Source: Capnocytophaga sputigena (GTDB taxonomy: Bacteria > Bacteroidota > Bacteroidia > Flavobacteriales > Flavobacteriaceae). Taken from it: a stretch of 64,000 nucleotides of DNA. Below, one piece after another: positions 21,695 through 47,300 of the stretch. The DNA lies in assembly GCF_900446695.1 (NCBI RefSeq), contig NZ_UAVP01000007.1:1-64000 (forward strand), read 5' to 3'. The number at the start of each line of letters is the position of its first letter. Positions within the stretch are counted from its first letter, which is position 1. The notes under the pieces were generated by a model. That model was given only the letters and a program-made list of their open reading frames with translations, was not told where the DNA came from and did no database searches. A program made the translations under genes and the position numbers.

Positions 21695-21713
21695 CCCTTT
21701 GATATATAAAGAT

Positions 21714-24012: not shown

Positions 24013-24450
24013 ATGGCAAAAGAAATTAGTAAAGTAGTTAAACTACAAGCTCGGGGAGGTCAAGCGAATCCTTCGCCACCAATTGGACCCGCATTAGGTG
24101 CTGCCGGTGTTAATATTATGGAGTTCTGCAAGCAGTTCAACGCTCGTACGCAGGACAAACAAGGAAAAGTAATTCCTGTAGTTATCACCGTTTATAAAGA
24201 CAAGTCTTTCGACTTTGTTATCAAAACTGCACCTGCTGCTGTTCAGCTGTTGGAAGCCGCTAAGGTTAAAGGAGGTTCCGGAGAACCAAACCGTAAGAAA
24301 GTAGCAAGTATCACTTGGGAACAAGTGAAAGCAATTGCAGAAGACAAAATGCCTGATTTGAACGCATTTACAATTGAGTCTGCAATGAGTATGGTTGCTG
24401 GTACGGCACGTTCAATGGGTATATCAGTAACTGGAGAAAAACCTTTTTAA
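24013..24450 (+). CDS. rplK: 50S ribosomal protein L11
   Basis: 145 residues. The N-terminal domain has the proline-rich [20 protein letters not shown], and the C-terminal rRNA-binding domain ends [18 protein letters not shown]. It forms the GTPase-associated centre with L10 and L12, whose genes follow. Thirteen bases before rplA. Confidence 0.97.
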
Positions 24451-24462
24451 TCGCAAAGCAAT

Positions 24463-25152: not shown

Positions 25153-25174
25153 TTTGTAGTTAAAAACCGAAATT

Positions 25175-25690: not shown

Positions 25691-25743
25691 AACAGAACAC
25701 ACAGAATTTATTTTTAAACAATTAAACAAAAACGATAGAAAAA

Positions 25744-26124
25744 ATGGCAGATTTAAAAAATTTCGCAGAACAATTAGTAAACTTAACCGTTAAAGAAGTA
25801 AACGAGCTTGCTCAAATCTTGAAAGAAGAGTATGGCATCGAGCCAGCTGCAGCAGCAGTAGCAGTAGCAGCAGGTCCAGCAGCAGGTGGTGCTGGTGAAG
25901 CAGCCGCTGAAAAAACAGAATTTGATGTATTCTTGAAATCAGCAGGTGCTAACAAATTAGCGGTTGTTAAATTAGTAAAAGATCTTACAGGTCTTGGACT
26001 TAAAGAAGCTAAAGAAGTAGTAGACGGCGCTCCTTCAAAAGTGAAAGAAGGTGTTTCTAAAGAAGAAGCTGAAGGGCTTAAAAAATCTTTAGAAGAAGCT
26101 GGTGCTGAAGTAGAATTGAAATAA
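25744..26124 (+). CDS. rplL: 50S ribosomal protein L7/L12
   Basis: 126 residues. An N-terminal dimerisation helix ([20 protein letters not shown]), an Ala-rich hinge [20 protein letters not shown], and a C-terminal domain with [20 protein letters not shown] and [18 protein letters not shown]. It recruits translation GTPases. Confidence 0.97.
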
Positions 26125-26145
26125 TTTTACTTATAAACCCTATAA

Positions 26146-26182
26146 GGTTTAGGTCTTTTTCAATGGCAAAAAGACCTAAACC
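26146..26182 (+). terminator. rplL-rpoB intergenic hairpin (attenuator candidate)
   Basis: A perfect 15-bp stem GGTTTAGGTCTTTTT with its complement around CAATGGC. It is followed only by ATTTTG, a weak T-run, so it would reduce rather than abolish read-through into rpoB. The remaining bases of the 273-base rplL-rpoB gap show no convincing TAnnTTTG box. Confidence 0.65.
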
Positions 26183-26397
26183 ATTTTGTAATTTAAAGCA
26201 ACAATACAACAACAATATAATGGTAAGACTTATCTTGCCAACCCTCAAACAAACAACTCATCAACTTTAAGCAAAGTCTGCAATAGTCTTTCCCACTACA
26301 AACTTTGTTTGAGCTTCAAAATAATAATTGCTGTTAAAAGCTAACTGACTAACAACTTACTACTAACACACTAAACAATAATATTAAAGTAAAGAAA

Positions 26398-29300: not shown

Positions 29301-30207
29301 ACTTGAAGGCATTGAAGATTACGCTCACCTTACTTCTGCAGGTTGGACTGATGATAAACATATCAACGGACTTATAGACGACCTCTTGCACAACTACCGC
29401 ATTCGCGAAAACGACTTGCAAGGTATGTTGCGCCGTGATAAATTCACTATCGCTGTGGGTGACGAATTGCCTGCAGGTATCCTCAAATTAGCTAAGATTT
29501 ACGTGGCTAAGAAACGTAAGTTAAAAGTAGGGGATAAGATGGCAGGTCGCCACGGTAACAAGGGTATCGTAGCGCGTATCGTTCGCGATGAGGATATGCC
29601 ATTCCTTGAAGACGGAACTCCGGTAGATATCGTGTTGAACCCACTTGGGGTACCTTCACGTATGAACATCGGTCAGATATACGAAACTGTATTGGGTTGG
29701 GCAGGACAAAAACTCGGTAAGAAGTTTGCAACTCCTATCTTCGATGGAGCATCGCTTGAGCAAATCAATGAGCTTACCGATGAAGCAGGCGTACCGCGTT
29801 TCGGTCATACTTACCTATACGATGGTGGTACAGGCGAACGTTTCGACCAAAAAGCCACTGTAGGGGTTATTTATATGATCAAACTCGGACATATGATTGA
29901 CGATAAGATGCACGCGCGTTCTATCGGTCCGTACTCACTCATCACACAACAACCATTGGGAGGTAAAGCCCAATTTGGTGGTCAGCGTTTTGGAGAGATG
30001 GAGGTATGGGCATTAGAGGCTTATGGAGCATCTAGTACCTTACGCGAAATCTTAACAGTAAAATCCGATGATGTAGTAGGTCGTGCCAAAACTTACGAAG
30101 CGATTGTAAAAGGTGAGACAATGCCAGAACCAGGCTTGCCAGAATCTTTCAACGTATTGATGCACGAGCTTAAAGGTCTTGGATTAGATATTCGACTTGA
30201 AGAATAA
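26398..30207 (+). CDS. rpoB: DNA-directed RNA polymerase subunit beta
   Basis: 1269 residues, full-length for Bacteroidota. Conserved segments include the rifampicin region [20 protein letters not shown] (near 468-487) followed by [13 protein letters not shown]. The residues whose mutation gives rifampicin resistance elsewhere (Asp, His and Ser) are wild type, so a susceptible allele is predicted. [28 protein letters not shown] and the C-terminal [20 protein letters not shown] are also present. Oddity: rpoC does not follow. A long hairpin terminates transcription 60 bases after the stop and unrelated accessory genes begin. Confidence 0.98.
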
Positions 30208-34172: not shown

Positions 34173-34856
34173 ATGACAACTATAGAAATACCTAAGTTTA
34201 TAGAAAAGTATAAAGCCTACGAACGAGAAGGCGGTATGATAGACTTTCGTATCTTTCAGTTGGATACAGAGCAGGAGGATACGCCTTATCAGAAGCATTT
34301 GGCAGTAGCCCAGCAGACTCTTATTTCGGTAGCGGAAGAAGTAAATACGCGTCTTGACCGTATAGCGGCTAAATCTAAAATAAATCGTAAGAAACTTTTT
34401 ACGATGGACTACGATTTTGGAGTCCTTAAAGATTCGGGTAAGGAGATTTCTGTACAAGACTTTATGGGCTGGCAATATGAAGAGGTGAGCGGAAGGATAA
34501 TTCTTAGTGGAGAGAAACTGTACAATCAGTATTTTTACTATGATGATAAAGAAGTGCCTGAAAAAGCAGTGACTATGACAGAGGAAGACCTCAAAAAGGA
34601 AGCCTTTACTTACGCTTTCTTTCAGCCCCTGTACTCTTTTATGATTACAAAAAGCAATTTTGAAAAAGGCAATTTCTTTTTAGACTTTTGTAGGTTGCTT
34701 TTTACCGATATTTCTCAAATAGAAGTCTATAAGTGGAGTACGGATAGCTCTAATTACTTTGATGAGGGTAAAAAGGGGAGAGGGAGTTTCTTTTGGACGG
34801 TCTATAATCCGTGTAGGTATTGGTATATAGGGATTATAGCCTCGACAACTGATTAA
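34173..34856 (+). CDS. hypothetical protein, last gene of the immunity-type array
   Basis: 227 residues, mixed alpha/beta, no signal peptide. A long N-terminal helix region (PYQKHLAVAQQTLISVAEEVNTR), then INRKKLFTMDYDFGVLKDSG, and an aromatic C-terminus (GSFFWTVYNPCRYWYIGIIA). No catalytic motif or known family recognised. Ten bases from the previous gene, so part of the same transcript. Confidence 0.65.
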   Translation: MTTIEIPKFIEKYKAYEREGGMIDFRIFQLDTEQEDTPYQKHLAVAQQTLISVAEEVNTRLDRIAAKSKINRKKLFTMDYDFGVLKDSGKEISVQDFMGWQYEEVSGRIILSGEKLYNQYFYYDDKEVPEKAVTMTEEDLKKEAFTYAFFQPLYSFMITKSNFEKGNFFLDFCRLLFTDISQIEVYKWSTDSSNYFDEGKKGRGSFFWTVYNPCRYWYIGIIASTTD

Positions 34857-34885
34857 TGATTTAATTATCAAAGTAAATCAAAAAT

Positions 34886-34930
34886 AAAAAAAATCACTCT
34901 TGCGGGTTGCCCCTCTCCTTGGGAGAAGTC
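34886..34930. repeat. dispersed intergenic repeat (CCCTCTCCTTGGGAG hairpin), copy 1
   Basis: AAAAAAATCACTCTTGCGGG followed by TTGCCCCTCTCCTTGGGAGA. Copies 2 and 3 lie at 41770-41828 and 41870-41929. The core CCCTCTCC-TTGG-GAGAGGG is palindromic. The methyltransferase remnant begins directly at its right edge. Confidence 0.7.
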
Positions 34931-35123
34931 CACGAGAGAGGAATTGCCTTTTGCCGATAATACTTTTGATATTGTGTTTCACAACGGAGGTATCAATTTC
35001 TTTAACGATAAAGCACTTGCTATAAGCGAAATGCTTCGGGTTGCCAAAGCAGGGAACAAACTCCTTATCGCCGATGAGACTGCCGACTTTATGGAATCAC
35101 TTTTAGAAAAAGCAACTAAATGA
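34926..35123 (+). pseudogene. 3' remnant of a class I SAM-dependent methyltransferase
   Basis: An open frame ending in TGA at 35121-35123 reads ELPFADNTFDIVFHNGGINF and then SEMLRVAKAGNKLLIADET, the post-motif-II and III part of a Methyltransf_11 domain (D-N-x-F-D-x-V, then LRV-x-K-x-G-x-x-LLIAD). No SAM-binding GxGxG part, nor any start codon, precedes it: the sequence runs straight into the dispersed intergenic repeat. It is a truncated relic, perhaps left by recombination at the repeat. Confidence 0.75.
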
Positions 35124-35296
35124 ATGTCTTACAGAAACGATTAGCACAAATAGAAACCGTTCCTCACGAAAATAGCTTGTGTGATGGAAAAGAACACGAT
35201 ACTTGGTACAATGAAACCAAAGTGAAATATCACCTAAATGAAGAATACAAAATACTTAGTTTTAAAGAAGGAAAAAAGCAATCACACTTAGGATAA
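35120..35296 (+). CDS. small hypothetical protein overlapping the methyltransferase remnant
   Basis: 58 codons from an ATG that overlaps the remnant's stop as ATGA. It reads MNVLQKRLAQIETVPHENSL, then a KEHDTWYNETKVKYHLNEEY section, ending in GKKQSHLG. It is not similar to anything I can name. The ATGA coupling is the kind seen in real operons, so it may have followed the intact methyltransferase; it could also be chance or a relic. Confidence 0.35.
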   Translation: MNVLQKRLAQIETVPHENSLCDGKEHDTWYNETKVKYHLNEEYKILSFKEGKKQSHLG

Positions 35297-35337
35297 GTGC
35301 TATTATAAAAGCATAAATTATTTTCATATATTCTCAC

Positions 35338-37065
35338 CTAATATTTCTTTACTTGTCCTAAACTAACAGTAAAGATTCCAAAATCATCAATCAGCATACT
35401 TTTTTTCTTGACTCCTTGGAGGGAGAAAAGTCCGTCCAATTCACGCTGGCTACGGCGGCGCATCACCCAGTCTTTTTCCTGATGGCTCTTCAGGACAAAG
35501 GCAATGGTTTTGAGCTGGGGGTGCCATGGCTGTCCTGTATAGATGATATACCCATTGTCCGAGATAGAAACCACCCCCTTGATTGCCTCAGAGGCCAAGA
35601 TATTATCGCCAAAAAGCTCAAAAATACCTGAGATGATGGTGATATTGGGCGAATAACTTAGTTTGCGGTAAGTATCAGCCTCAAAACAATTGTAATTGGT
35701 AAAGCGAATATTCTGGTAGCCACGCTCTTTGATAATTTGCTCTCCCTTCTGTATGTTGGCTGGTAGGAACTCATTGATAACGATCTCCACTTCAGGGTGG
35801 CGCTCTTTGATATCAAAAAGGTAGTTGCCCACTCCACCTGCGATGTCCAATATTTTTACCTCCTGTTCTTGGGCTTGTAGGGCTTGTATAGCCTTTTCTA
35901 CCTGTTGTAGGAGGTGTCTCTTGCGGATACGTACCCCGCGCCAGCCTATGGCATTGAGATAGCTTTTGTCCATCCAACGACCTATACCCCACTTGCCTTG
36001 TGGCGTGTTTTTATATACATAATCCATGGAGGCGCCAGAATCGAAGCCATAGGTAAGCCCTACAGTCATACCACCACTGAGGTGACCAAGCTTGCTCAAC
36101 GCCCATTTCTGAAGATGGTAACCCCAACGCTCTCTGGTGGGAATCAGTTCATATTGCATGGTCTCAAATTCTTTCTGAGTAAAGAGATCAGAATCAAGAG
36201 TAGGAGTAGGCAAGGGTGCAGAGAAAGCCTTTTGGATAAAGTGTTGTAGGAGCTTATATACTTCCTCACGGCCTTGCTCGAAGAGAATTCCATGATGGAA
36301 GCCCTCCAAGGTAACAAACTCTTTTATAGAGGAGGATAGGTTTACATAAAACTGCTTTTGCTGTTGGTTAATCACCACAAAGTCTTTTTTAGCGGAGAGC
36401 AGTAGGGTAGGGGTGGTGATTGCAGCGGCATCTTCCACCAATCGCTTACCAGCATTGGCAAGGTCAATGAGGAGTTTGCCATTGATAGAGCGGGTGATGA
36501 GAGGGTCATTATCGTAAGCCTGTTGCTGCTTAGTGTCGCGAGTGAGCATCTTGGATTTTACATAGCTCTTAACAATCAGTTTAGGATTGATTTTTAGAGC
36601 CAACTCGATGGCTTGCTTGGCCATAGGAACGATCAGGTTGATCTCAAAGGCAGGAGCCAATAGCGCCATGCCAGCGATGCGGGGTGCAAAATCATGCACC
36701 CAAGCCGATGTGATTACCCCGCCAATACTATTGGCCACTACAAAGATATCTTCCTCGCGTACCTCATAGTGCTGCCCAAGGAACTTGGCAAAGGTATCCA
36801 AGTCCCGTACCGAATCCATGAAAACAGGAGATACAGCGGCTTTGGTGTGCCCATGTCCACGCATGTCAAAAGCAAAGATGTTGTAGGCAGCAAAGAGCGG
36901 ATGGGTAGCAAATTCCTGTAGACGCTCCCCATACTCATGCCCTCTATGGATTACGATAAGGGTCTTTTGTCCGGGCTTGTAATTCCATTCGTAGAAGAAT
37001 AGTTCTTCCCCTTCATGACTTTTGAAAAAACCTGTGTTCATGGTATAATGATTTTGATACGACAA
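35338..37065 (-). CDS. YnbC-like alpha/beta hydrolase fused to a SAM methyltransferase
   Basis: 575 residues, close to E. coli YnbC (about 585). The N-terminal half is an alpha/beta hydrolase: TLIVIHRGHEYGERLQEF, IFAFDMRGHGHT, the nucleophile elbow VVANSIGGVI (Ser near 112), LLSAKKDFVVINQQQ (Asp) and LEGFHHGILFEQGR (His). The C-terminal half has the SAM motif ILDIAGGVGNYLFD (near 400), then IVINEFLPANI and ITIISGIFELFG. Substrate unknown; the operon points to a lipid. Last gene of five on the minus strand. Starts at 37065 or 37041 are both possible. GC-richer than its surroundings. Confidence 0.85.
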   Translation of the reverse strand: MSYQNHYTMNTGFFKSHEGEELFFYEWNYKPGQKTLIVIHRGHEYGERLQEFATHPLFAAYNIFAFDMRGHGHTKAAVSPVFMDSVRDLDTFAKFLGQHYEVREEDIFVVANSIGGVITSAWVHDFAPRIAGMALLAPAFEINLIVPMAKQAIELALKINPKLIVKSYVKSKMLTRDTKQQQAYDNDPLITRSINGKLLIDLANAGKRLVEDAAAITTPTLLLSAKKDFVVINQQQKQFYVNLSSSIKEFVTLEGFHHGILFEQGREEVYKLLQHFIQKAFSAPLPTPTLDSDLFTQKEFETMQYELIPTRERWGYHLQKWALSKLGHLSGGMTVGLTYGFDSGASMDYVYKNTPQGKWGIGRWMDKSYLNAIGWRGVRIRKRHLLQQVEKAIQALQAQEQEVKILDIAGGVGNYLFDIKERHPEVEIVINEFLPANIQKGEQIIKERGYQNIRFTNYNCFEADTYRKLSYSPNITIISGIFELFGDNILASEAIKGVVSISDNGYIIYTGQPWHPQLKTIAFVLKSHQEKDWVMRRRSQRELDGLFSLQGVKKKSMLIDDFGIFTVSLGQVKKY

Positions 37066-37107
37066 AAATAGAAAATTATTTTTTGATTACCTAATTTTTT
37101 GTTAGAA

Positions 37108-37854
37108 TTAGTTGTGATTTTGCATCCATTTGGCCTTTCTGTACATTAGTAAGGACAGCAAAGGCTTAGGCAGTAGCGAGAGTAATTGCATGAGCCACTT
37201 CATACGAGTAGGGAAGAGGTGTAGGCTTTTCTTTTGAGTGATAGCCCTGCTGATTTCGGCTACTGCTCTATCTTCACTCACCAGAAAAGGTTTCTTAGAG
37301 AGATTGTTTTGGTTGAGCTTGTAGAGCTTTTGGGTGGCTACATACCCAGGCGCAATAGAGGTGATATAGATGCCAAAGGGGCGTAAGGCACGCCTATAGG
37401 CATCAGCTATCTGTAAAACACTGCGCTTGGTCTTGGTATATAGGCTGGAGGAGGGATAGTCCAAAATCCCTGAGATAGATGCTAGCAGGACGATTTGGCC
37501 TCCATGATGAGCCATAAGTTCTCGGCCAACCTCCAAGGTATTGACGGCTCCTATGATATTGGTTTGTAGTATACTGACCGCCTCCTCGTAAGAAATTTCT
37601 CCTACCACATCCTCGGCATAGCTACCCGCACAGTTGATAAGTAAGGAGAGGGTGTCTGAGCCTACAAACTGTCGTATCACCTGGGTTAATAGTGCTTTGT
37701 CTATAACATCGGCCTTATAACTCTCAAAAGGAACTGCCTTGGGGAGCTTGCTAAGATCTCTGCCGCATACCCCAACCCGATGGCCGCTTTGCTGGTAGAA
37801 GTGAGCCAAGGCAAACCCTATGCCAGTGGTGCCTCCTATGATAAATACATTCAT
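37108..37854 (-). CDS. short-chain dehydrogenase/reductase of the ynb-like operon
   Basis: 248 residues, classical SDR length. N-terminal NAD(P) site MNVFIIGGTTGIGFALAHFY (TGxxxGIG with I-G-G-T-T-G-I-G), NCAGSYAEDV for NAG, catalytic Ser in LASISGILDY and YTKTKRS for YxxxK. The C-terminal KSLHLFPTRMKWLMQLLSLL looks membrane-associated. It reduces or oxidises a carbonyl/hydroxyl; by context a lipid intermediate. The start overlaps the stop of the patatin-like gene by 4 bases. Confidence 0.9.
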   Translation of the reverse strand: MNVFIIGGTTGIGFALAHFYQQSGHRVGVCGRDLSKLPKAVPFESYKADVIDKALLTQVIRQFVGSDTLSLLINCAGSYAEDVVGEISYEEAVSILQTNIIGAVNTLEVGRELMAHHGGQIVLLASISGILDYPSSSLYTKTKRSVLQIADAYRRALRPFGIYITSIAPGYVATQKLYKLNQNNLSKKPFLVSEDRAVAEISRAITQKKSLHLFPTRMKWLMQLLSLLPKPLLSLLMYRKAKWMQNHN

Positions 37855-38903
37855 AAGCTAAAGGTGTTAAGAATAGTTTGGTAACCATAGTCCCATTGCC
37901 GCTCTATCTGCTCTCGGTAAGAGGGATAGTCCTTGGGAAAGTGAATTCCTATCTCCAGATGCTTCCAATTGATATATTTCTCAGAGTAAAAGCCCTTTAG
38001 AACGGTAGTTGCTCTTCGAGTATCTATCCATTGGGCAGGATAGGAAGCCACCGACGCCAACCGCTCGTTGCCACTAAAGCCCAAGACGGCACGTACCAAA
38101 GACTCTTCGGTAGGAGAGTAGGCCTGCTTGTGCTCAGCAATTACAGTAGTTGAAAGCGCATAAGCCAGCTCCATAGGAACAAGGTCAATAGCCCCGCCTG
38201 CATAGTATGTCCCCTGATAGCTTACAGGAGCTACATAGAACATATCCGAGACAGAAATACGGGCAGCCCAGAGCAAGGGAATAGCCGTTTCCACACTTAT
38301 ATCAGTTGCTACGGCCGAAAGCGTATAGTTGGATTCGGTATGTTGCAGTGTCTCAAGAGGGATCCTATGGGCAGTCTCAGGGTCGGTTATGAGCACCTCT
38401 TGGTAGAGTTTTCGCTTACCCCTACGCTTGCCACACTCATGGGGGGCAAAGCACATCTTTGCTCCTATGATGATAGTGGGCAAGGCAGCAGAAAAAGCTA
38501 ACTTGGTCAAGGAGGGGAGTAGCCCCGATAGGTCTTGGGACATTTCTACCAAATAGCGTGTATATACATCCTCTACCAAGGGAGCACGACGCCGGTCATA
38601 GCGCTTCTGTAGGACTAAAAGCCCCAAGCGATATAGCTTGCTATAAGGGGTAAGGGACAGGCTTTGGATAAAGTGGTAAAACTCCTGTGATTGCAGATAG
38701 GCTTTTCTCTCTGTATTATTAGCAAAAGCATTGATTACCAAGGCAGCAAAAGCCCCACCACAGCTGGCAATAAGTAGCTCAGGAGCTTTGCCTATATCAC
38801 ACAACGCTGCATACATACCATTGTATAAGGCAAAGCGGGTGCCTCCTCCGGAGAGAAGCAAACTACGGGAAAAGGGCTTTATCGTATCCATAGGTAAAAC
38901 CAA
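37851..38903 (-). CDS. patatin-like phospholipase-family protein with altered active site
   Basis: 350 residues. The oxyanion loop LLLSGGGTRFALYNGMY is intact. The nucleophile elbow, normally G-x-S-x-G followed by A-[LF], reads IASCGGAF: aligned on GAF the Ser becomes Cys, and aligned on the Ser the first Gly becomes Ile. The usual D-G-G of the catalytic dyad reads YYAGGAIDLVP, with Ala at the Asp position. So it may be inactive, use another mechanism, or have a shifted active site. The start overlaps the end of the CdsA-like gene by 25 bases. Not part of E. coli ynbABCD; an added member of this operon. Confidence 0.75.
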   Translation of the reverse strand: MVLPMDTIKPFSRSLLLSGGGTRFALYNGMYAALCDIGKAPELLIASCGGAFAALVINAFANNTERKAYLQSQEFYHFIQSLSLTPYSKLYRLGLLVLQKRYDRRRAPLVEDVYTRYLVEMSQDLSGLLPSLTKLAFSAALPTIIIGAKMCFAPHECGKRRGKRKLYQEVLITDPETAHRIPLETLQHTESNYTLSAVATDISVETAIPLLWAARISVSDMFYVAPVSYQGTYYAGGAIDLVPMELAYALSTTVIAEHKQAYSPTEESLVRAVLGFSGNERLASVASYPAQWIDTRRATTVLKGFYSEKYINWKHLEIGIHFPKDYPSYREQIERQWDYGYQTILNTFSL

Positions 38904-39655
38904 ATACAGTTGAACAAGAGACTATCTATGCGATCCAAGAGACCACCATGACCAGGAATCAGTTGGCTGGTGTCCTTCACCCCCGCCCGCCGCTTGAGGT
39001 AAGAGAAAGTCACATCGCCCCAGAAACCAAAAAAGCTAATGAATAAGCCTACAAAAACTAATGTATGTAGTGCAATAGGAAGCCTCAGCAAGTAGCCTAA
39101 GCCTACACTCAAAAAAGGGGTGAGCAGTAAGCCGCCTACAAACCCTTCCACGGTCTTATTGGGGCTTATCTTGGGTAAGATCTTGTGCTTGCCAAAGCGC
39201 TTTCCAGTGAGGTATTGGAAGATGTCGTTGAGTTCGGTCGTTACCACCAAGAAGATGAACCACTCCACCCCTTGTGGCTTCATACGTAAGAAAGTCAGGT
39301 GAGGGTAGGCTGCCAAAACAATCAGTAGGGAAAGGGGCAATCCTAAGGGGATTTGCCTAAGGCATAGATATAGGATAAGGCCTATCCCCACAACCATACA
39401 AGCTTCTACCATATAAGTGGAGTAGTTGGGACAGCTCCATAGTAAAACCCCTTGTAACAAGGGAATAGCCATACGCCAATAGCTCGGATTAAAACCAAAG
39501 AGCCCGCCCAATTCCGTAAGGGCTTGAAAGCTTACCCATAGGGAAAAAAGACACATGGCGTAGGGGTGGGAGACAGCCGCAGCAAAAACACAGATAATCA
39601 CTCCCCAGCTCCTGATACGAAGTGGTACATCGGCATATTTGTTGTCAAGCGGCAT
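38879..39655 (-). CDS. YnbB-like CDP-diacylglycerol synthase (CdsA family)
   Basis: 258 residues, with seven or eight membrane helices (e.g. GLILYLCLRQIPLGLPLSLL). It ends with the CdsA signature: FWGDVTFSYLKRRAGVKD followed by PGHGGLLDRIDS. Makes CDP-diacylglycerol from CTP and phosphatidate, or acts on a similar lipid phosphate. The chromosome should also carry a housekeeping cdsA, so this is a dedicated second copy. Overlaps the next gene upstream (CDP-alcohol phosphatidyltransferase) by 11 bases. Confidence 0.9.
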   Translation of the reverse strand: MPLDNKYADVPLRIRSWGVIICVFAAAVSHPYAMCLFSLWVSFQALTELGGLFGFNPSYWRMAIPLLQGVLLWSCPNYSTYMVEACMVVGIGLILYLCLRQIPLGLPLSLLIVLAAYPHLTFLRMKPQGVEWFIFLVVTTELNDIFQYLTGKRFGKHKILPKISPNKTVEGFVGGLLLTPFLSVGLGYLLRLPIALHTLVFVGLFISFFGFWGDVTFSYLKRRAGVKDTSQLIPGHGGLLDRIDSLLFNCIWFYLWIR

Positions 39656-40247
39656 AAAGTCCTTTTTTTAAGCGGGTGAAAGTACTTAAAAGTAGCAAGG
39701 CAATAACTATGGCAAAAACCACTTGAGAGTAGGCTTGTATTCCCACACCAAAGTAGGCAAGCAGCCCATAGATACCCATCAGCAGTGCTCGGTCACTCTT
39801 GCCCATAGGCCCCTCATAGCGCCTTTGCCCTCCTAAGACCTTGCCCATGACGCCAGCAAACTCATTGAGTACGCTCAGTACAATAAAAGCTACCACCCAG
39901 TAAAGGCTTTCGGGGTGGTACTTTAGCAAGGGGAAGAAGATAAACACATCCGAGACCACATCGCCCACCTCATTGAGTACCTCTCCTAAGCGGGAGGTTT
40001 GTCCGAACTCTCGTGCCATCATACCGTCAAGAGCATTGAGGATCATACGCACCAACAGCCCTATGGGCAGTGCCAAAAAGAAAAGTGGTTCCGCCGAAGC
40101 CTCCCAAAAGAGCACGCCAATCCCAAAGGAGAACACAATGGTCACTACAGTAATCTCATTGGCAGTAACACCTCTCCTGTGTAGCCATACCAGTAGCGGG
40201 TGCAATAGCTGCTGGAATTTAGGTTTTAGTTTGTATACAGAAATCAT
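39645..40247 (-). CDS. YnbA-like CDP-alcohol phosphatidyltransferase
   Basis: 200 residues, the length of E. coli YnbA. The CDP-alcohol signature D-x2-DG-x2-AR-x8-G-x3-D-x3-D is present as NALDGMMAREFGQTSRL followed by GEVLNEVGD: the first and third Asp are Asn. As far as I recall E. coli YnbA has the same substitutions, so this is a subfamily trait and not damage. About six membrane helices. It would transfer a phosphatidyl group from CDP-diacylglycerol to an unknown alcohol. First gene of the five-gene minus-strand operon. Confidence 0.88.
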   Translation of the reverse strand: MISVYKLKPKFQQLLHPLLVWLHRRGVTANEITVVTIVFSFGIGVLFWEASAEPLFFLALPIGLLVRMILNALDGMMAREFGQTSRLGEVLNEVGDVVSDVFIFFPLLKYHPESLYWVVAFIVLSVLNEFAGVMGKVLGGQRRYEGPMGKSDRALLMGIYGLLAYFGVGIQAYSQVVFAIVIALLLLSTFTRLKKGLYAA

Positions 40248-40265
40248 AATAGGTTAATGAGTATA

Positions 40266-40454
40266 TTAGTTAAAAAACTTATCAAAATCCGAGTAGCCAC
40301 TTGCGGAACGACACCAACCTTTCCGAGTTAACCTTATACCTACCACTATAATTGCAGATAGATTATAGTGCTTGGTGTTATAGGTTTTTCCATCATCAGT
40401 AAGGTACTCCGCTACCAAAGCACGGATGATGTCTTTCAGAGTGTGTTTTTTCAT
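40266..40454 (-). pseudogene. RhuM-like fragment
   Basis: A 62-codon frame whose middle reads DDGKTYNTKHYNLSAIIVVG, close to the conserved G-[KR]-x-Y-x-x-x-x-YNLDAIISVGYRV core of RhuM-family (virulence protein) genes, normally over 300 residues. Both the N-terminal part and everything after VGIRLTRKGW are missing or unrelated. It lies 18 bases upstream of the YnbA-like gene on the same strand, and the two share the leader AACCTATTATG. Interpreted as a relic at the operon's edge. Confidence 0.5.
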
Positions 40455-40475
40455 AATAGGTTCATTTGTTAATTA

Positions 40476-40823
40476 TCAGAGAGTTTCCCTCTCATATTTG
40501 TCTTCGTGAAAGTACTCATAAGCACTGGCTTCCAATTCTCCACAATCGGAAATAAGATTATTGTCTTGGTCATATATCTTATAATTCTGTTGGATCTCAC
40601 CTATGGGGCATTCACCATCTAGGCCTAATAGGATAGTGTAAAATACATCTTCTAACAGAATATCAATAACTTCCTTAAGTTTCTCAGTTTGACTCTCTGT
40701 CAGAGCCATTTCTTTTATTTTTACATTTACAGCCGAAGCTTGTTCGGGTTGTGCTTGAAAGCATGACTTTAAAAACGCTAGTTTTTCAAGGTAAAAGTTC
40801 TTTGCAAATTCGTCTGAGGTCAT
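40476..40823 (-). CDS. hypothetical immunity-type protein, promoter side interrupted by an IS
   Basis: 115 residues: an N-terminal helical half (MTSDEFAKNFYLEKLAFLKS, LKEVIDILLEDVFYTILLGL) and a C-terminal YKIYDQDNNLISDCGELEASAY strand-helix ending. The arrangement resembles small cytoplasmic immunity proteins, but I do not recognise a named family. The left end of the IS lies only about 26 bases upstream of its ATG, so its original promoter has probably been displaced. Confidence 0.6.
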   Translation of the reverse strand: MTSDEFAKNFYLEKLAFLKSCFQAQPEQASAVNVKIKEMALTESQTEKLKEVIDILLEDVFYTILLGLDGECPIGEIQQNYKIYDQDNNLISDCGELEASAYEYFHEDKYERETL

Positions 40824-40849
40824 AATGTTGATATATTATTTATAGAAGC

Positions 40850-41737
40850 TGTTTAAACTTTTTCCTATAATAAAGTAAAAGTTCCCGAAAATTAGTAATT
40901 TTGCGTTTGAAAAAAAAGAACACCAAAATTCAGGAACTTTGGGCAAAGATACAATAAATAATTGGATTATTCCCTTTTTAAGTGTAGGAAAAGGAGGATT
41001 TAAAAGTAATTTTGATTTAGCTTCAATAATTTTATTGATTCTCAAGAGATTAAAAACAGAAGTGCAATGGAGAGAACTTCCAATTGAGAGTTATTTTGAA
41101 AAAGGAGAAATCTCTTGGCAAAATGTCTATTACTACTTCAATAAATGGAGTAAAGATGGTAGTTTTCAGCGAGTATGGTTGAATCTATTAAGCAAGAAGA
41201 AAAGAAAATTAGATATGTCTTGCGTTCAATTGGATGATAGTCATACACGTTATCGCCAAAAAGGAGAATCTGCAGGTTATCAAGCAAGAAAAAAAGCCGT
41301 AACCACAAATAGTATTTTTTTTGTGTGATAATAAAGGGTAAATGATAGCAATGGGAAGCCCTAAAGCAGGAAATCACAATGACTTATACGAAATAGAAGA
41401 AGTACTAAAAGAAATCTTAGCTTTATTAGAAGAAGCAGGAATAGAACATAAAGGTCTGTTTCTCAATGCTGATGCAGGATTTGATAGTAAGTCTCTTAGA
41501 GATTTTTTAGAAAGCAAAGAAATTATAGCAAATATTAAATCTAATCCCCGAAATGGAGAGCAACCAGATGTTTATTTTGATGAAGAATTGTACAAAAATA
41601 GGTTTAAGATCGAACAAGCAAATGGTTGGCTTGATGGATATAAAGGTTTGATAATGAGATATGAGTATCTTGATGTAACTTGGATTGGAATGCTCCTATT
41701 AGGGTTTATATCCAAGTTCCTCAAAAAAGTTTAAACA
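40850..41737 (+). mobile_element. IS5-family-like insertion sequence, inactive
   Basis: Terminal inverted repeats TGTTTAAACTTTTT (40850-40863) and its complement (41724-41737) bound 888 bp. The tips contain the palindrome GTTTAAAC. A promoter-like TAATTTTG (40896-40903) precedes the transposase. No clear target duplication could be defined at the ends. The transposase gene carries a frameshift and a nonsense change. Confidence 0.8.
40939..41734 (+). pseudogene. IS5-type transposase, broken twice
   Basis: Frame 1 (40939-41328): WRELPIESYFEKGEISWQNV, YYYFNKWSKDGSF and the first catalytic Asp in VQLDDSHTRY. It ends after an eight-T run. A one-base shift continues FFLCDNKG and then meets TAA where relatives have Gln (CAA to TAA) before MIAMGSPKAGNHND. 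Frame 2 (41342-41734) has the second Asp, FLNADAGFDSKSLRD, and the Glu in RFKIEQANGWLDGYKG. A T-run shift alone could be programmed; the added stop codon makes the gene dead. Confidence 0.85.
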
Positions 41738-41769
41738 CGTTTTATATTTAAAAACAACCTATATATCTT

Positions 41770-41828
41770 GAAAAAATCACTTTTGCGGATTGTCCCCTTC
41801 CCTTCGGGAGGGGGAACGGGGGTAGGCT
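41770..41828. repeat. dispersed intergenic repeat, copy 2
   Basis: AAAAAATCACTTTTGCGGAT followed by a CCCCTTCCC-TTCG-GGAGGGGG hairpin and ACGGGGGTAGG. See 34886-34930. Together with copy 3 this fills most of the gap between the IS and the DUF6794 gene. Confidence 0.7.
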
Positions 41829-41869
41829 TTCAAACACAATATTTACATTAAAAAACAGATTTATAACAA

Positions 41870-41929
41870 AAAATCCCTCTTACGGATTGCCTCCTCTCCT
41901 TGGGAGAGGGGGAACGGGGGTGAGGACTC
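41870..41929. repeat. dispersed intergenic repeat, copy 3
   Basis: AAAAATCCCTCTTACGGATT followed by CCTCTCC-TTGG-GAGAGG and GGAACGGGGGTGAGG. It lies about 20 bases before the DUF6794 gene. Confidence 0.7.
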
Positions 41930-41947
41930 CAAATAAAAAACGTCAAT

Positions 41948-42226
41948 ATGAAAAAACAAAAACCTAAAAACCTAACAGAATGTATCCAAATGCTGGATAA
42001 GAACCTCAAAAAGCAGGATAAAGAGTATATAAAAACGCTTACCGAAGATGAATTCTTTATGGAAAGTCATTTTACTTTAGGAATGGGCATTCGCAATGAG
42101 TGGCTTCGCAGTGGAAATCCTGAACTTGTAAAGTTCTTTTTAGACCAAGGCGTTAAACACCTCGATGATATGTCGGCTATGATACTCACAAGCTACTATA
42201 GATATCTAATAAATTCTAATAATTAA
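41948..42226 (+). CDS. DUF6794-like protein
   Basis: 92 residues. PKNLTECIQMLDKNLKKQDK, then HFTLGMGIRNEWLR (the H-F-x-LG-x-x-IRN motif) and FFLDQGVKHLDDMSAMIL (the DDMS-x-x-IL motif). These are the conserved features I associate with DUF6794, a small family common in Bacteroidota toxin-immunity arrays. It is followed 7 bases later by the macro-domain gene. Confidence 0.75.
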   Translation: MKKQKPKNLTECIQMLDKNLKKQDKEYIKTLTEDEFFMESHFTLGMGIRNEWLRSGNPELVKFFLDQGVKHLDDMSAMILTSYYRYLINSNN

Positions 42227-42233
42227 TTGAGTG

Positions 42234-42758
42234 ATGATACATAGTAACATTGAAATCGTATTAGGAGATATCACCAAAATTTCTGTAGATGCTATTGTGA
42301 ATGCTGCCAACACTTCTCTACTTGGTGGAGGAGGTGTGGATGGAGCTATTCATAAAGCAGGGGGCAAAGCTCTCACTGAAGAATGTGAAAAGATAAGAAA
42401 TAAACAAGGAGGTTGCAAGGTGGGTAGCGCTGTTATTACTACTGCGGGCAATTTGCCTGCTAAATATGTTATTCACACAGTAGGTCCGGTGTGGAATGGG
42501 GGAACACATAATGAAGAAAACCTACTGGCACAAGTTTACATTAGTTGTTTGGAGTTGGCTTTAGAGCATCAAGTAGCTACTATTTCATTTCCTAATATCA
42601 GTACTGGAAGGTATAGATTTCCGAAGGAAAAAGCAGCACAAATAGCACTTCATACCATAGCTGATTTCTTGCAAAGAACGGATAAAATTAAGCAGGTGAA
42701 GATGGTTTGTTTTGATCAAGAAAACTACGATATTTATACAAACATACATAAGATTTAA
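42234..42758 (+). CDS. macro-domain protein, O-acetyl-ADP-ribose deacetylase type
   Basis: 174 residues, a single macro domain. The ADP-ribose-binding motifs are complete: VDAIVNAANTSLLGGGGVDG, AIHKAGGKALTEEC, KYVIHTVGPVW and TISFPNISTGRYRFPKEKAA. It resembles MacroD-type hydrolases that remove ADP-ribose from proteins or deacetylate O-acetyl-ADP-ribose. Placed among immunity-type genes it might reverse an ADP-ribosylating toxin, which is inference. The start is ATG at 42234; a GTG three bases earlier is less likely. Confidence 0.93.
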   Translation: MIHSNIEIVLGDITKISVDAIVNAANTSLLGGGGVDGAIHKAGGKALTEECEKIRNKQGGCKVGSAVITTAGNLPAKYVIHTVGPVWNGGTHNEENLLAQVYISCLELALEHQVATISFPNISTGRYRFPKEKAAQIALHTIADFLQRTDKIKQVKMVCFDQENYDIYTNIHKI

Positions 42759-42788
42759 CAACTCACAATATAATTAAAAGTTAAAACA

Positions 42789-43427
42789 ATGAACACAAAC
42801 AAGCAAGAGAAATATGATGAAATAACCGATTTTCACAAGGGCTTTGCTTGTGTAAGGCAAGGCGACAAATGGGGCTACATCAATGAGAAGAGAATCCTTA
42901 TTACCCCTATAAAATACGATTTTGTCTATGACTTTTTTCAAGGAGTGGCAATGGTGAGAATAGGTGCGCAATACGGATTGATAGATACCTCTGGCAAGGA
43001 GATTACTCCCGTAAAATACGACCTTATAGATGACAACGACTTCTATAACCATCACCCTGCAGCTGCTCTGTTGAATGGCAAATGGGGCTTTATCAATGAG
43101 AAAGGAGAAGAGGTGATTCCGTTTATCTATGAAGATACTACCTACTTTCATAAAGATTATGTAGCTGTAAAGAAAGACGGAAAATGGGGTTTTATCAACC
43201 AAAAAGGCGAACAAATTATTCCTTTTCTGTACGATGATGCTTCTTATTTCACCGAGGAACTTGCCTTGGTAAAGAAAGGTGATAAATATGGTTATATCAA
43301 TAACAAAAACGAAACCGTCTTCCCTTTTATTTATGACGATGGCGCTCTCTTTGAGAATGGTAAAGCGTGGGTACAGATTGGGGATAAACAATTTGAGATT
43401 AATAAATTAGGTATAGAAATAAAATAA
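42789..43427 (+). CDS. WG-repeat protein
   Basis: 212 residues made of about six WG repeats: DKWGYINEKRILITPIKYD, AQYGLIDTSGKEITPVKYD, GKWGFINEKGEEVIPFIYE, GKWGFINQKGEQIIPFLYD, DKYGYINNKNETVFPFIYD. No signal peptide is present, so it is cytoplasmic. WG repeats form beta structures, often in proteins attached to toxins or immunity genes. Eight bases before the DKNYY gene. Confidence 0.92.
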   Translation: MNTNKQEKYDEITDFHKGFACVRQGDKWGYINEKRILITPIKYDFVYDFFQGVAMVRIGAQYGLIDTSGKEITPVKYDLIDDNDFYNHHPAAALLNGKWGFINEKGEEVIPFIYEDTTYFHKDYVAVKKDGKWGFINQKGEQIIPFLYDDASYFTEELALVKKGDKYGYINNKNETVFPFIYDDGALFENGKAWVQIGDKQFEINKLGIEIK

Positions 43428-43435
43428 GAAACAGA

Positions 43436-44302
43436 ATGAAAATCAATAAACCTTTGGCTAAAAAACCTCCTTTTTTTGATATCGATATCCGCACTGTAGC
43501 AGATATTGATAAAGACCCGCGTTTTTATATGGCGGACACACAAGAAACGCCCTGCTATTGGACAGACGGCAAGCGGATATACTACCGCTATTCAGCTATA
43601 GAGAAAGCAAATCTTGATACTTTTGTTTATTTTAATGGCTTTTTTGCTAAAGACGATAAGCATTGTTATATCGTGGGGCGCCCTCTCAAAGGGGCGAATC
43701 CTAAAACTTTTGAAATGCTCAACGAGTGTTATGTTACCGATTACCAAAGTGTTTGGACATCGGGTGGGCGCTTTGAACCTGAGGATATTAGTACTTTTGA
43801 GGTATGTGATGAGGGGATACACAGAACGGATAGAGATAGAGAGACTTCGTGGGAGTTTAGCGATGGCATCAGGCGTGTGGTGCGTGTAGAGATTCCGTAT
43901 GGCTATGCTAAAGATAACAAGCAGGTGTATTACGAGGATTATCACGGCAAGATAAAGATACTCGCTAAAGCCAATCCAGCGACTTTCATCTCAATGAACG
44001 ACGGTGATTTTGCGAAAGATGATAGGTGTGTTTACTATGGGAAAACACCTTTACCTAAAGCTAATCCTGCTACGTGGCAAAAGATTTCACATTTTTATTC
44101 CAAAGATGATAAGCGTATTTATTACCAAAACAAACTCATCAAAGAAGCAGATTACGATACTTTTGAGGTAGTAGTGCTCACTTCTCCAGAAGGATATAAA
44201 CTGCCCTATGGCAAGGATAAAAACCAATATTATAACTGCGGGAACCCTCTTAGCGAAGAGGAAGCCTTACACGAAGTGAACAAGCCGATCTGGGATGATT
44301 AG
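43436..44302 (+). CDS. DKNYY-domain protein
   Basis: 288 residues with several DKNYY repeats of the type AKD[DN]K-x-V/I-Y-Y-x-G/N-x-x-[IL]-x-x-A-N-P-x-T-[FW]: FAKDDKHCYIVGRPLKGANP, YAKDNKQVYYEDYHGKIKIL, FAKDDRCVYYGKTPLPKANP, YSKDDKRIYYQNKLIKEADY. The family is common in Bacteroidota and Fusobacteria; the function is unknown. Last gene of the accessory island, just before the promoter of the MMPL fusion gene. Confidence 0.9.
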   Translation: MKINKPLAKKPPFFDIDIRTVADIDKDPRFYMADTQETPCYWTDGKRIYYRYSAIEKANLDTFVYFNGFFAKDDKHCYIVGRPLKGANPKTFEMLNECYVTDYQSVWTSGGRFEPEDISTFEVCDEGIHRTDRDRETSWEFSDGIRRVVRVEIPYGYAKDNKQVYYEDYHGKIKILAKANPATFISMNDGDFAKDDRCVYYGKTPLPKANPATWQKISHFYSKDDKRIYYQNKLIKEADYDTFEVVVLTSPEGYKLPYGKDKNQYYNCGNPLSEEEALHEVNKPIWDD

Positions 44303-44309
44303 AAAAGTT

Positions 44310-44340
44310 TTTGTACTTCTGAAATTATTCTCTACTTTTG
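44310..44340 (+). promoter_or_regulatory. promoter of the MMPL-acyltransferase gene
   Basis: TTTG (44310-44313), a 19-base spacer and TACTTTTG (44333-44340), 34 bases before the start codon. Confidence 0.7.
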
Positions 44341-44374
44341 TGCCGCTAAAAGAAGTATCGCAAACTTTGCCAAT

Positions 44375-47300
44375 ATGCTAAACAGAATTTACCAATATAT
44401 CACCACTCATAAACTCGCAACCTTCTCATTCTTCACCGCTTGGGCGCTCATTGCTATTTATGGTTTGAGTCAGTTGCGGTTTGAAGAGGATATCACCAAA
44501 GTACTCCCTCAAAACGATAAGACGAACCTCACTTCCAAGGTACTCAAGCAACTCAATTTCGCCGATAAAATCTCGGTAATGGTAACAGCCGAAAAAGGCG
44601 GAACGCTCACCGATATGCAGGCAGTTGCCGAAACTTTGCGCGATACGCTCAATGCTTCTATGACGAAGTATATCACCAGTATTCAGGGGGTTATAAACGA
44701 AGAAGAAATCGATGAGACTTGGCAGTTTGTAAACGATCACCTACCTCTTTTTCTAAATGATGAAGATTACACCTATTTAGAACGCCGTTTAGCCCCCGAT
44801 AGTCTCAAATCAATGGTGGAGAGTCAGTACAAAACGATGCTCACACCTGCGGGTATGGTGGCACAACAGTTTATTCGCAAAGACCCCTTTGGTCTCACTT
44901 TTCGCGGTTTGCGCAAACTTCAAGAACTGAATACAGGTAACGATTTTAAGATTGCCAATGGTTTCCTCACTACTAACGACGAGCAACATATCCTCTTCTT
45001 CATCAACCCTAAGTACGATGGCAACGACAGCGAGCACAATTCCGCTTTTGTCGCAGGATTAGATGAGTTGCAAGACCATCTCAATGTTCAGTATAAAGGA
45101 AAAGCGCGCGTAGATTTCTTTGGAGCTCCTTTTATTTCGGTGAGCAATGCCTCTCAAATCAAAACCGATATCCTCACTACGGTACTCATTTCACTATCAG
45201 TACTTTATTTATTACTTGTCTTTTTTTATCGAAGTGTCTATATCCCATTTATTGCGTTTATCCCTTCAGCTTTTGGGGTGCTCTCTGCTTTGGCAACACT
45301 CTATGTGCTCAAAGGCAGTATTTCAGCAATTTCTATCAGTTTAGGAGCGGTACTCTTGGGAGTTACAATCGATTATTCACTGCATATTCTTACCCATTAT
45401 AAGGTAGCTAAAAACACCGCCGAGTTGTACCGTGCTGTAACCGTGCCTATCTTGCTCAGCAGTATCACTACCGCTATTTCATTCCTCTGCTTGCTCTTTG
45501 TGCATTCTGAGGTGATGCAAGATTTAGGGATATTTGCTTTCGTGGGCATAATGGTATCAGCCATATTGTCGTTGGTGCTCGTGCCTCATTTCTACCGTGG
45601 CAATCGCACTATCGAGGTGCGCAAAACCTTTTTAGACCGCATAGGGGCTTATCCATTTCATCACAACAAGTGGGTAGTTGGGGCTTGCTTACTGCTCATA
45701 GTAGTGAGTTGTTTTACTTTCCAAAATGTCCGTTTCAATAGCGATATTGCCAATATCAACTATATCAACGAACGTTATAAAGCAGCTGAACATCAATTAG
45801 AAAACATCACCGATAGTGAATACAAATCACTTTACGCTGCTGCTTATGGCAACTCGTTAGAGGAAGCCTTAGAACGCAATTACACACTATATCAGCAGTT
45901 GCAAAGTTATAAAGCGCACGATAGTATCAAGCAATTCAGTTCTATTGGGGGGATTGTGTTGCCTAAAAAGGAACAAGAAGCGCGTTTGCAACGATGGAAA
46001 GATTTTTGGAATGCCGAAAGACAGCAATTTCTAAAACAACAACTGATAGGAAAAGGAAATGAGGTCGGTTTTAAAGAAGAAACTTATGCGCCTTTCTATC
46101 AAAGTATAGCAGGTGATTTTGAAGTGATAAACAATCTTGATGCTTATAAAGCCCTTTCAGCCATTCCGTTAGAAGATTTTATTACCGAAAAAGAAGGTTT
46201 TTATACCATTGCCAATCTCGTAAAGCTCACTCCCGCCGAGCGTGACTCTTTTATTCATTCAGTAGAAAAACATACACCTACTGTTGTTATCGACCGTAAG
46301 AATTTGAGCGAAACGTTCTTAGGCAAACTCAAAGACGATATATTGCTGTTAGTAAACTATTCGTCTATCGCTATTTTCCTCATACTGCTCTTGTTCTTTA
46401 GGCGTGTAGAATTGGTGTTACTTACCCTTATTCCTATTGGGGTTACAGGGGTAGTTACTTCCGCTCTGATGAACTTTTTTGGCATAGAGTTCAATGTGTT
46501 TAGTATGATTGTCTGCACTTTGGTATTAGGACATTCGGTAGATTTTAGTATTTTTATGACCTGCGCATTGCAAAAAGACTATACCGATGGTAAAAACGAA
46601 CTTCCTGTGTACAAAGTGTCGGTGCTTTTAGCGTCTATTACTACCTTTTTAGCTATCGGTACGCTTATTTTCGCCAAACACCCCGCCTTAAAATCAATTG
46701 CATCGGTATCGGTGATAGGTATTTTCACTGCTTTGGCAATAACTTTTGTATTTTACCCTACTATATTTAAGTTTTGTATCTTCCGTCGTCCAGATAGAGG
46801 GCGTTCTCCAGTGAGTTTGCGTCTTTTGCTGCAATCCATACTGCTAACTACCTATTATGCACTATCGTCTATTATTCTCTCCAATATAGGTTGGCTACTT
46901 GCCAAAATAACTCCTAAACGCACTATGTGGCTCAGACGTTTAGCAGCTTCGCTCACCACTTCGGTGCTTTATGCCAATCCTTTTGTGCGCAAAAAAGTAG
47001 AGAATCCACACCATATACAGCTTACAACTCCTTCGGTAGTGATTTCTAATCATACCTCGTGGCTCGATACTTTGGCAATAGGGCTCTTCACACATCGCAT
47101 CAGCTATATGGTAAACGATTGGGTGTATAACTCGGTAGTATTTGGACGTTATGTGCAAGCAATGGGCTTCTTTCCAGCTTCTGAAGGTATAGAAAAAGGA
47201 ATGCCCTTATTCGAAAAGAATTTGAAAAATGGTATTTCAGTAATGATTTTCCCAGAGGGAAAACGCTCCGATACCAACCAAATACACCGTTTTCACAAAG

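What the first reader, a model, noticed from the sequence alone, without database searches (positions are those of the whole stretch)
35338..40247. Five-gene ynbABC-like lipid operon with added patatin and SDR genes, apparently transferred
Seen: five overlapping or near-touching minus-strand genes for CDP-alcohol phosphatidyltransferase, CdsA-like synthase, patatin-like protein, SDR and an alpha/beta-hydrolase-methyltransferase fusion of 575 residues. Known: E. coli ynbA, ynbB and ynbC encode proteins of the same three kinds and nearly the same lengths. Inference: an accessory pathway that makes CDP-diacylglycerol, builds an unusual phospholipid, then remodels and perhaps methylates it. Base composition differs: I counted 35/60 and 36/60 G+C in two lines inside (36661-36720, 39781-39840) against 24/60 outside (34321-34380), and codon use follows.
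Basis: partly seen in the sequence, partly recalled or inferred. Interest (0 to 1): 0.78.

Follow-up and report, generated by a model that had tools for sequence, protein, structure and literature searches.

The report
Second kind of ynb lipid-gene cluster
A block of five membrane-lipid genes in a mouth bacterium turns out to be one copy of a recurring, mobile gene set, related to an unexplained E. coli operon but carrying an odd patatin-type enzyme with cysteine in place of its catalytic serine, which gives new ways to find out what these lipids are.

Summary
The five genes are real, at the stated coordinates, and three encode clear homologues of E. coli YnbA, YnbB and YnbC (42, 37 and 38% identity). 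The patatin and SDR genes are not chance additions. They are neighbours, in the same order, in 17 of 17 clusters read: six Capnocytophaga, five Fusobacteriota, a Tannerellaceae MAG, Rhodoferax, three Undibacterium and a Moraxella plasmid. With the YnbC domain alone as bait, 4 of 4 new Fusobacteriota carriers had the patatin and 0 of 26 Pseudomonadota carriers did. An unrooted YnbC tree splits the two types on one branch, 100/100. E. coli-type loci carry instead a PlsC-like acyltransferase in 29 of 36. The patatin has Cys at the nucleophile position in 19 of 19 sequences and never the catalytic Asp. YnbA has Asn at two metal-site Asp positions in 49 of 49. Composition, patchy presence and the plasmid copy support horizontal transfer. 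Best reading: a CDP-diacylglycerol pathway in which a Cys-patatin plus reductase fills the acyl-transfer slot that PlsC holds elsewhere. The anatomy is well supported. The chemistry is inferred and the product is unknown.

The parts
39645..40247 (-). ynbA-like CDP-alcohol phosphatidyltransferase, 200 aa
   Evidence: 42% identity to E. coli YnbA over 197 aa; PF01066 9.6e-10
39960..40037 (-). Altered CDP-alcohol motif N71xxD74GxxAR x8 G xxx N92 xxx D96: Asn at the first and third Asp positions
   Evidence: Same Asn pair in 49 of 49 YnbA proteins; canonical Asp in the genome's two other CDP-alcohol enzymes and in the aligned solved PIP synthase
38879..39655 (-). ynbB-like CdsA paralogue (CTP-dependent CDP-diacylglycerol synthase family), 258 aa
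   Evidence: 37% to E. coli YnbB; PF01148 1.2e-52; a second CdsA-family gene lies elsewhere in the genome
37851..38903 (-). Cys-patatin, 350 aa, patatin fold
   Evidence: PF01734 8.9e-7; AlphaFold model pTM 0.80 matches PlpD at Z 17.7, rmsd 3.6, 232 residues
38760..38762 (-). Cys48 codon, in place of the nucleophile Ser of GxSxG
   Evidence: Cys in 19 of 19 homologues; HMMER aligns it with the Ser of the VipD GASAG, in a hit that is itself not significant (E 1.2)
38193..38201 (-). AGG where patatins have catalytic DGG (A235)
   Evidence: A, I, S, F, T, L or M, never D, in 19 of 19
37108..37854 (-). SDR oxidoreductase, 248 aa
   Evidence: PF00106 1.6e-25; next gene after the patatin in 17 of 17 clusters
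35338..37065 (-). ynbC-like alpha/beta-hydrolase fused to methyltransferase, 575 aa from TTG
   Evidence: 38% to E. coli YnbC, nearly full length; PF12146 and PF12147; hydrolase Ser113, Asp228, His258 kept in 52 of 52
37066..37107 (-). 42-bp gap between SDR and ynbC; ynbD sits there in the Tannerellaceae cluster, and in genome G004 a PAP2-only half of ynbD follows the SDR

Best explanation
This is a horizontally acquired copy of a second, patatin-type kind of ynb cluster. Shown: the gene content, the recurrent pat-SDR pair, the split from the E. coli type, and the conserved active-site changes. Inferred: it encodes a membrane pathway for a minor lipid. A Cys-patatin carries an acyl group as a thioester and transfers it to a glycerophosphate-type acceptor, and the SDR reduces a keto or acyl-keto intermediate; together they fill the step that a PlsC-like acyltransferase holds in E. 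coli-type clusters, giving phosphatidate. YnbB activates it to CDP-diacylglycerol. YnbA, with its altered metal site, transfers the phosphatidyl group to a polar acceptor. YnbD, where present, removes a phosphate. YnbC's lipase-like domain cleaves or transfers an acyl chain and its methyltransferase domain methylates the product. No substrate or product is shown.
For: Patatin then SDR, neighbours in the same order, in 17 of 17 patatin-type clusters in Bacteroidota, Fusobacteriota and Pseudomonadota. Patatin and ynbC occur in the same 6 of 20 Capnocytophaga genomes, also in the two where ynbC lies elsewhere on the contig. With the YnbC domain as the only bait, 4 of 4 new Fusobacteriota genomes have the patatin and 0 of 26 Pseudomonadota genomes do. 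One branch, 100/100, separates 16 patatin-type from 36 other YnbC rows. A PlsC-like gene lies in or beside 29 of 36 E. coli-type loci and inside 0 of 17 patatin-type clusters; one was confirmed as PF01553. Cys48 in 19 of 19, catalytic Asp in 0 of 19. YnbC Ser-Asp-His in 52 of 52. E. coli YnbB is reported to make CDP-DAG in vitro (review PMC7018664, passages).
Against: Two patatins of the family are orphans: the Duganella genome and G365 gave no PF12147 match, and the stretches held show no SDR of this kind, so the patatin can exist without the pathway. Loss of the Asp could mean a dead or non-catalytic protein. Five burkholderial loci, one other pseudomonadal locus and E. coli show neither patatin nor PlsC, so the acyl step may come from elsewhere; three of those five stretches hold ynbC without ynbA or ynbB. 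The window also has a PlsC domain in an MMPL fusion 4.1 kb away, so a PlsC domain is not lacking. The PlsC profile was built from ORFs picked by motif in the same loci. The YnbA tree needs two changes, not one. The patatin model is only moderate in confidence (pLDDT 72, under 50 at residues 236-240).
Confidence: 0.42

Rival explanations
1. Inositol-lipid pathway: YnbA is a phosphatidylinositol-phosphate synthase and YnbD (PAP2 plus dual-specificity phosphatase) the phosphatase, as in the Bacteroides inositol pathway; patatin, SDR and YnbC then tailor the product.
For: Best NCBIfam matches of YnbA are archaetidylinositol-phosphate and PIP synthases, best PDB match a CDP-DAG-inositol enzyme at E 2.7e-4. 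The window genome has only three PF01066 proteins, YnbA and two that I call PssA-like and PgsA-like by eye. C. ochracea ATCC 27872 is reported to contain some PI (PMC8176214, passages); its published genome length equals that of G017, which holds the cluster.
Against: All NCBIfam scores are far below cut-off (best 73.6 against 180). PI in that strain is trace, 284 against 78,800 ng PE in the inner membrane, beside PC, so carry-over from the medium is possible. The motif DX2DGX2AR...GX3DX3D used for the Bacteroides enzyme is not met. No inositol-phosphate synthase gene was sought.
Confidence: 0.2
2. Glycolipid route: YnbB supplies CDP-DAG for MPIase-like GlcNAc-pyrophosphate-diacylglycerol, and the other genes modify that glycolipid.
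For: YnbB overproduction in E. coli raised MPIase and YnbB could not replace CdsA for phospholipids (PMC6362211, passages; review PMC7018664, passages).
Against: The E. coli ynbB knockout did not significantly change MPIase. It gives no role to YnbA, the patatin or the SDR. Nothing here tests it in a patatin-type organism.
Confidence: 0.12
3. Lipid remodelling by hydrolysis: the patatin is an ordinary phospholipase that trims the new lipid.
For: Patatin fold; GGG and R of the oxyanion segment kept in 18 of 18 sequences that cover it.
Against: Ser to Cys in 19 of 19 and no catalytic Asp in 19 of 19; YnbC already has an intact lipase triad.
Confidence: 0.13
4. Pseudo-enzyme: the patatin is a catalytically dead lipid- or acyl-binding partner, for example a scaffold or carrier for YnbB or YnbA.
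For: The Asp of the dyad is lost, and the residue after GGGxR is F, I or Y where active patatins have Gly (the Gly is recalled).
Against: An invariant Cys at the nucleophile position with invariant GGG, R215, S217 and D220 is more than a scaffold needs.
Confidence: 0.13

Closest known systems
E. coli K-12 ynbABCD (b1408-b1411)
   Same: Homologues of YnbA, YnbB and YnbC over nearly full length; YnbD homologues, some halved or interrupted, in 11 of 17 patatin-type clusters
   Different: E. coli has no patatin, SDR or PlsC in the operon; full-length ynbD was not found in the Capnocytophaga carriers; the YnbCs fall in separate groups
ynb clusters with a PlsC-like gene in Burkholderiales and other Pseudomonadota
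   Same: ynbA, B, C and D together in 14 of 19 and 14 of 16 stretches
   Different: PlsC-like acyltransferase instead of patatin plus SDR
Patatin family (PlpD, CapV, CapE, plant patatin)
   Same: Fold, PlpD Z 17.7; GGG and xGG motifs
   Different: Cys for Ser and no catalytic Asp
Bacteroides thetaiotaomicron inositol-lipid cluster BT_1522-1526
   Same: CDP-alcohol enzyme plus phosphatase logic (PMC9246714, passages)
   Different: That motif is DX2DGX2AR...GX3DX3D; YnbA has Asn at two of those positions; different partner genes

Membership tests
ynbABC(D) cluster | YnbA, YnbB and YnbC homologues encoded together | tested here: met
ynbABC(D) cluster | ynbD present | tested here: not met
   No match in the window genome; half gene in G004 only, 1 of 20 genus genomes
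ynbABC(D) cluster | YnbC inside the E. coli-type group | tested here: not met
   Other side of a 100/100 branch
CDP-alcohol phosphatidyltransferase (PF01066) | Profile match over cut-off | tested here: met
   39.5 bits, cut-off 22
CDP-alcohol phosphatidyltransferase (PF01066) | Four metal-site Asp (DxxDGxxAR..GxxxDxxxD) | tested here: not met
   N-D-N-D in 49 of 49 YnbA
Housekeeping PssA or PgsA | Better match to these than to YnbA | tested here: not met
   149 bits to E. coli YnbA, 25.8 and 22.3 to the genome's two other PF01066 proteins; TIGR00560 25.8 and TIGR00473 21.1 bits, below cut-offs 109.1 and 107
Phosphatidylinositol-phosphate synthase | NCBIfam score over cut-off | tested here: not met
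   46.1 of 170 (PIP synthase) and 73.6 of 180 bits (archaetidylinositol-phosphate synthase)
Phosphatidylinositol-phosphate synthase | Inositol-1-phosphate synthase in the genome | not tested
Patatin phospholipase (PF01734) | Profile match and fold | tested here: met
   29.7 bits, cut-off 27.7; PlpD Z 17.7
Patatin phospholipase (PF01734) | Ser nucleophile and Asp of DGG | tested here: not met
   Cys in 19 of 19; no Asp in 19 of 19
SDR | adh_short profile | tested here: met
   1.6e-25
Anti-phage defence (CBASS patatins) | PADLOC model match | tested here: not met
   0 families for 5 proteins at E 0.01
MPIase biosynthesis | Makes GlcNAc-PP-DAG | not testable with these tools
   Needs biochemistry

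The most novel reading that the evidence does not exclude
The Cys-patatin founds a thioester-forming acyltransferase branch of the patatin superfamily. With its paired SDR it runs an acyl-dihydroxyacetone-phosphate-like route to a dedicated phosphatidate pool (acylate a keto-glycerophosphate, then reduce it), which YnbB and the altered-metal-site YnbA convert into a lipid class not yet described. The whole six-gene set moves between phyla, also on plasmids.
Probability: 0.2. Interest if true: 0.85.

Novelty: new variant of a known kind. Interest (0 to 1): 0.6.

Why it matters
In the searches made here I saw no paper that assigns a pathway to ynbABCD: one paper holds all three of ynbA, ynbB and ynbC, as a gene list; 15 hold 'ynbC', many plainly unrelated by title, of which I read passages of three; five hold YnbB and MPIase, of which I read passages of two; two hold ynbA with 'CDP-alcohol phosphatidyltransferase', seen as a listing; none holds 'ynbABCD' or 'Methyltransf_20'. 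Most subscription papers are not held. Two cluster types that swap a PlsC-like enzyme for patatin plus SDR give a concrete hypothesis for the first step. The invariant Cys, the Asn pair in YnbA and the intact YnbC triad name residues to mutate. C. ochracea ATCC 27872, whose common lipids have been measured, appears to carry a split copy, so lipid mass spectrometry can start there.

Tried and rejected
Rejected: housekeeping PssA or PgsA; defence system; vertical flavobacterial inheritance (PF12147 in 1 of 296 Bacteroidota genomes, the window's own); the G049 hit as a relative, since it reads as an ordinary patatin with GASAG and DGG. Rejected: Ser47 as nucleophile, since it is Thr in 2 of 19 while Cys48 never varies.

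Led nowhere: sigma-70 and terminator scans found no more than shuffles. A Bacteroidetes promoter pattern (recalled) gave 10 matches against 3.8 expected, none within 1 kb upstream of ynbA. phmmer of the patatin against the PDB gave nothing significant. A paper search on Cys-patatins found 0 papers with two of four phrases; the phrases were narrow. Six papers from an acyl-DHAP-reductase search were seen as a listing only; their titles show no bacterial precedent. A review on oral Capnocytophaga held none of four terms tried. Dropped before counts: the third, weaker PF12147 match in G363 (199 bits) and 9 of 25 further Pseudomonadota carriers were not read for neighbours; the Moraxella YnbC was left out of the 52-row tree and the 52-row residue count.
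Full report
WHAT IS THERE. Five overlapping or near-touching minus-strand genes lie at 35338-40247 as stated. Pfam confirms each domain; the patatin match is only just over cut-off. By blastp the first, second and fifth gene products are homologues of E. coli YnbA (42% over 197 columns), YnbB (37% over 274) and YnbC (38% over 582); patatin and SDR have no counterpart in the E. coli operon. E. coli has a fourth gene, ynbD, annotated as a phosphatase; its relative in the Fusobacteriaceae MAG has PAP2 and dual-specificity phosphatase domains. The window genome also has a second CdsA-family protein and two other CDP-alcohol enzymes with canonical motifs, which I call CdsA, PssA-like and PgsA-like by eye; so this is an accessory set.

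THE GENUS. Among 20 genomes of the genus, 6 hold the patatin and the same 6 hold the YnbC domain. ynbA-ynbB-patatin-SDR is contiguous in all 6. ynbC is next to it in 4 and far away on the same contig in 2 (G004, G017), yet never missing. A ynbD relative is found in 1 of the 20, as a PAP2-only half gene directly after the SDR in G004.

OTHER ORGANISMS. One scan of a collection of 84,980 species genomes with the patatin alignment gave 11 loci, four of them Capnocytophaga. Of the seven others, six carry matches to ynbA, B, C, D, patatin and SDR within one stretch (in the Tannerellaceae MAG patatin and ynbB are broken in frame); Duganella has the patatin alone. A plasmid search gave one record, Moraxella osloensis pNP7-2, typed as mobilizable, with all six genes, ynbC broken in frame and ynbD split by a transposase. 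In the Tannerellaceae MAG the order is A-B-pat-SDR-D-C, which is the window's order plus ynbD.

A TEST WITH ANOTHER BAIT. The clusters above were found through the patatin, so I then searched with the YnbC methyltransferase family alone. Bacteroidota: 1 of 296, the window's own genome. The order of Undibacterium (Burkholderiales): 19 of 220, where the patatin profile gave 2 of 220, one of them with ynbC. Pseudomonadota: 27 of 398. Fusobacteriota: 5 of 98, one of them the earlier locus. Of the 14 named control genomes only E. coli rang at these thresholds; at the looser one Deinobacterium chartae rang too, below the cut-off. I then sought the patatin in the 4 new Fusobacteriota and 26 Pseudomonadota carriers: 4 of 4 and 0 of 26. 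In ynbC-negative genomes I sought the patatin only.

TWO TYPES. I read stretches around 19 E. coli-type loci from 18 burkholderial genomes and around 16 of the 25 further Pseudomonadota carriers, plus E. coli. ynbA, B, C and D are all found in 14 of 19, 14 of 16 and 1 of 1 stretches; the rest lack one or more, and one holds ynbC alone. A PlsC-like acyltransferase ORF lies in or beside the cluster in 14 of 19, 15 of 16 and 0 of 1, 29 of 36 in all, and inside 0 of 17 patatin-type clusters. The PlsC profile was built from motif-selected ORFs in the same loci; one ORF was confirmed independently as PF01553. The window has one PlsC domain 4.1 kb outside the cluster, in an MMPL fusion. A weak SDR match in one E. 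coli-type stretch (L079, 56 bits) I take as unrelated. The patatin and SDR genes are neighbours in the same order and strand in 17 of 17 patatin-type clusters. The YnbC tree of 52 rows (midpoint-rooted for drawing, LG+G4) separates 16 patatin-type from 36 other rows on one branch, 100/100. An earlier 33-row tree with a Moraxella fragment, under a mixture model, gave the same split, 100/99. The YnbA tree (48 rows, quick method) needs two changes, so it does not add to this.

ACTIVE SITES. Nineteen patatins were aligned, one of them a fragment. Position 48, where patatins have the nucleophile Ser, is Cys in 19; the Asp of DGG is replaced by A, I, S, F, T, L or M in all 19; GGG and R23 are kept in the 18 that cover them. 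The AlphaFold model (pLDDT 71.7, pTM 0.80) puts residue 48 between a strand (43-47) and a helix (50-59), as in a nucleophile elbow, and matches PlpD best (Foldseek 3.7e-5; Z 17.7, rmsd 3.6, 232 aligned). FabD-type acyltransferases also appear, but at Z about 7.5, which may be only a common arrangement. The YnbC triad (S113, D228, H258) and the SAM-site residues checked (D407, A409, G411, G413) are intact in 52 of 52. YnbA has N-xx-DG-xx-A...G-xxx-N-xxx-D in 49 of 49, against the DX2DGX2AR...GX3DX3D quoted for BT_1523 (PMC9246714, passages).

TRANSFER. The operon is 46.7% G+C against 38.3% (SD 2.5) in 253 overlapping background windows, none as high, and four of five genes fall below all 207 background ORFs in codon likelihood. 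In G017 (both pieces) and for ynbC in G004 the G+C contrast is absent, which fits later adjustment or a different history. Sites differ: G004 and G017 have other neighbours. Patchy presence in the genus, near absence in the phylum sample and a plasmid copy point to transfer. The donor is not identified; Tannerellaceae and Fusobacteriota are the nearest relatives outside the genus in the tree.

MECHANISM. From family knowledge (recalled): patatin hydrolases use a Ser-Asp dyad; PlsC makes phosphatidate; CdsA makes CDP-diacylglycerol; CDP-alcohol enzymes move phosphatidyl groups. E. coli YnbB is reported to make CDP-DAG in vitro and to support MPIase but not bulk phospholipid synthesis (PMC7018664 and PMC6362211, passages). 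ynbC disruption is reported among five E. coli disruptions that made the group II intron protein LtrA more diffuse, linked in that paper to polyphosphate (PMC2435150, passages). Because patatin plus SDR and PlsC exclude each other in the clusters read, I infer that the Cys-patatin is an acyltransferase and the SDR its reductase partner. This is an argument from gene content, not biochemistry. The published lipids of C. ochracea ATCC 27872 are PA, PE, PC, PG and trace PI (PMC8176214, passages); from the passages seen these are common classes, so an unknown lipid could have been missed.

VERDICT. Observation confirmed; kinship and transfer supported; the 'added' genes reinterpreted as part of a second cluster type with a Cys-patatin; product unknown.

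Noticed in passing
23414-30207: rpoB (26398-30207, Pfam) follows a run of ORFs whose sizes fit nusG and rplKAJL (recalled order, not searched), but no rpoC-sized ORF follows in the window; small accessory genes and the ynb cluster come next.
   Followed up: no
44375-47890: 1171-aa MMPL exporter fused to a PlsC acyltransferase domain, 4.1 kb from ynbA; the DNA from 34853 to 45837 is 97% identical in G014.
   Followed up: partly
40939-41734: Two adjacent ORFs that read like halves of an IS transposase (by eye, no profile search) upstream of ynbA; within the stretch that is 97% identical in G014.
   Followed up: no
21672-23102: BspA-type leucine-rich repeat protein (LRR_5 3.6e-119).
   Followed up: no
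L082 6503-14446: Moraxella osloensis plasmid copy of the cluster looks decayed: ynbA runs into a ynbC fragment and a transposase splits ynbD.
   Followed up: partly
L080 8091-9230 and L030 7001-8107: Orphan Cys-patatins in G365 and Duganella; no PF12147 match in either genome.
   Followed up: partly
L061 5110-5622, L062 5135-5659, L063 8797-9393: A roughly 170-200 aa membrane-protein-like ORF beside plsC and ynbD in E. coli-type clusters; no Pfam match for the one tested (L061).
   Followed up: no
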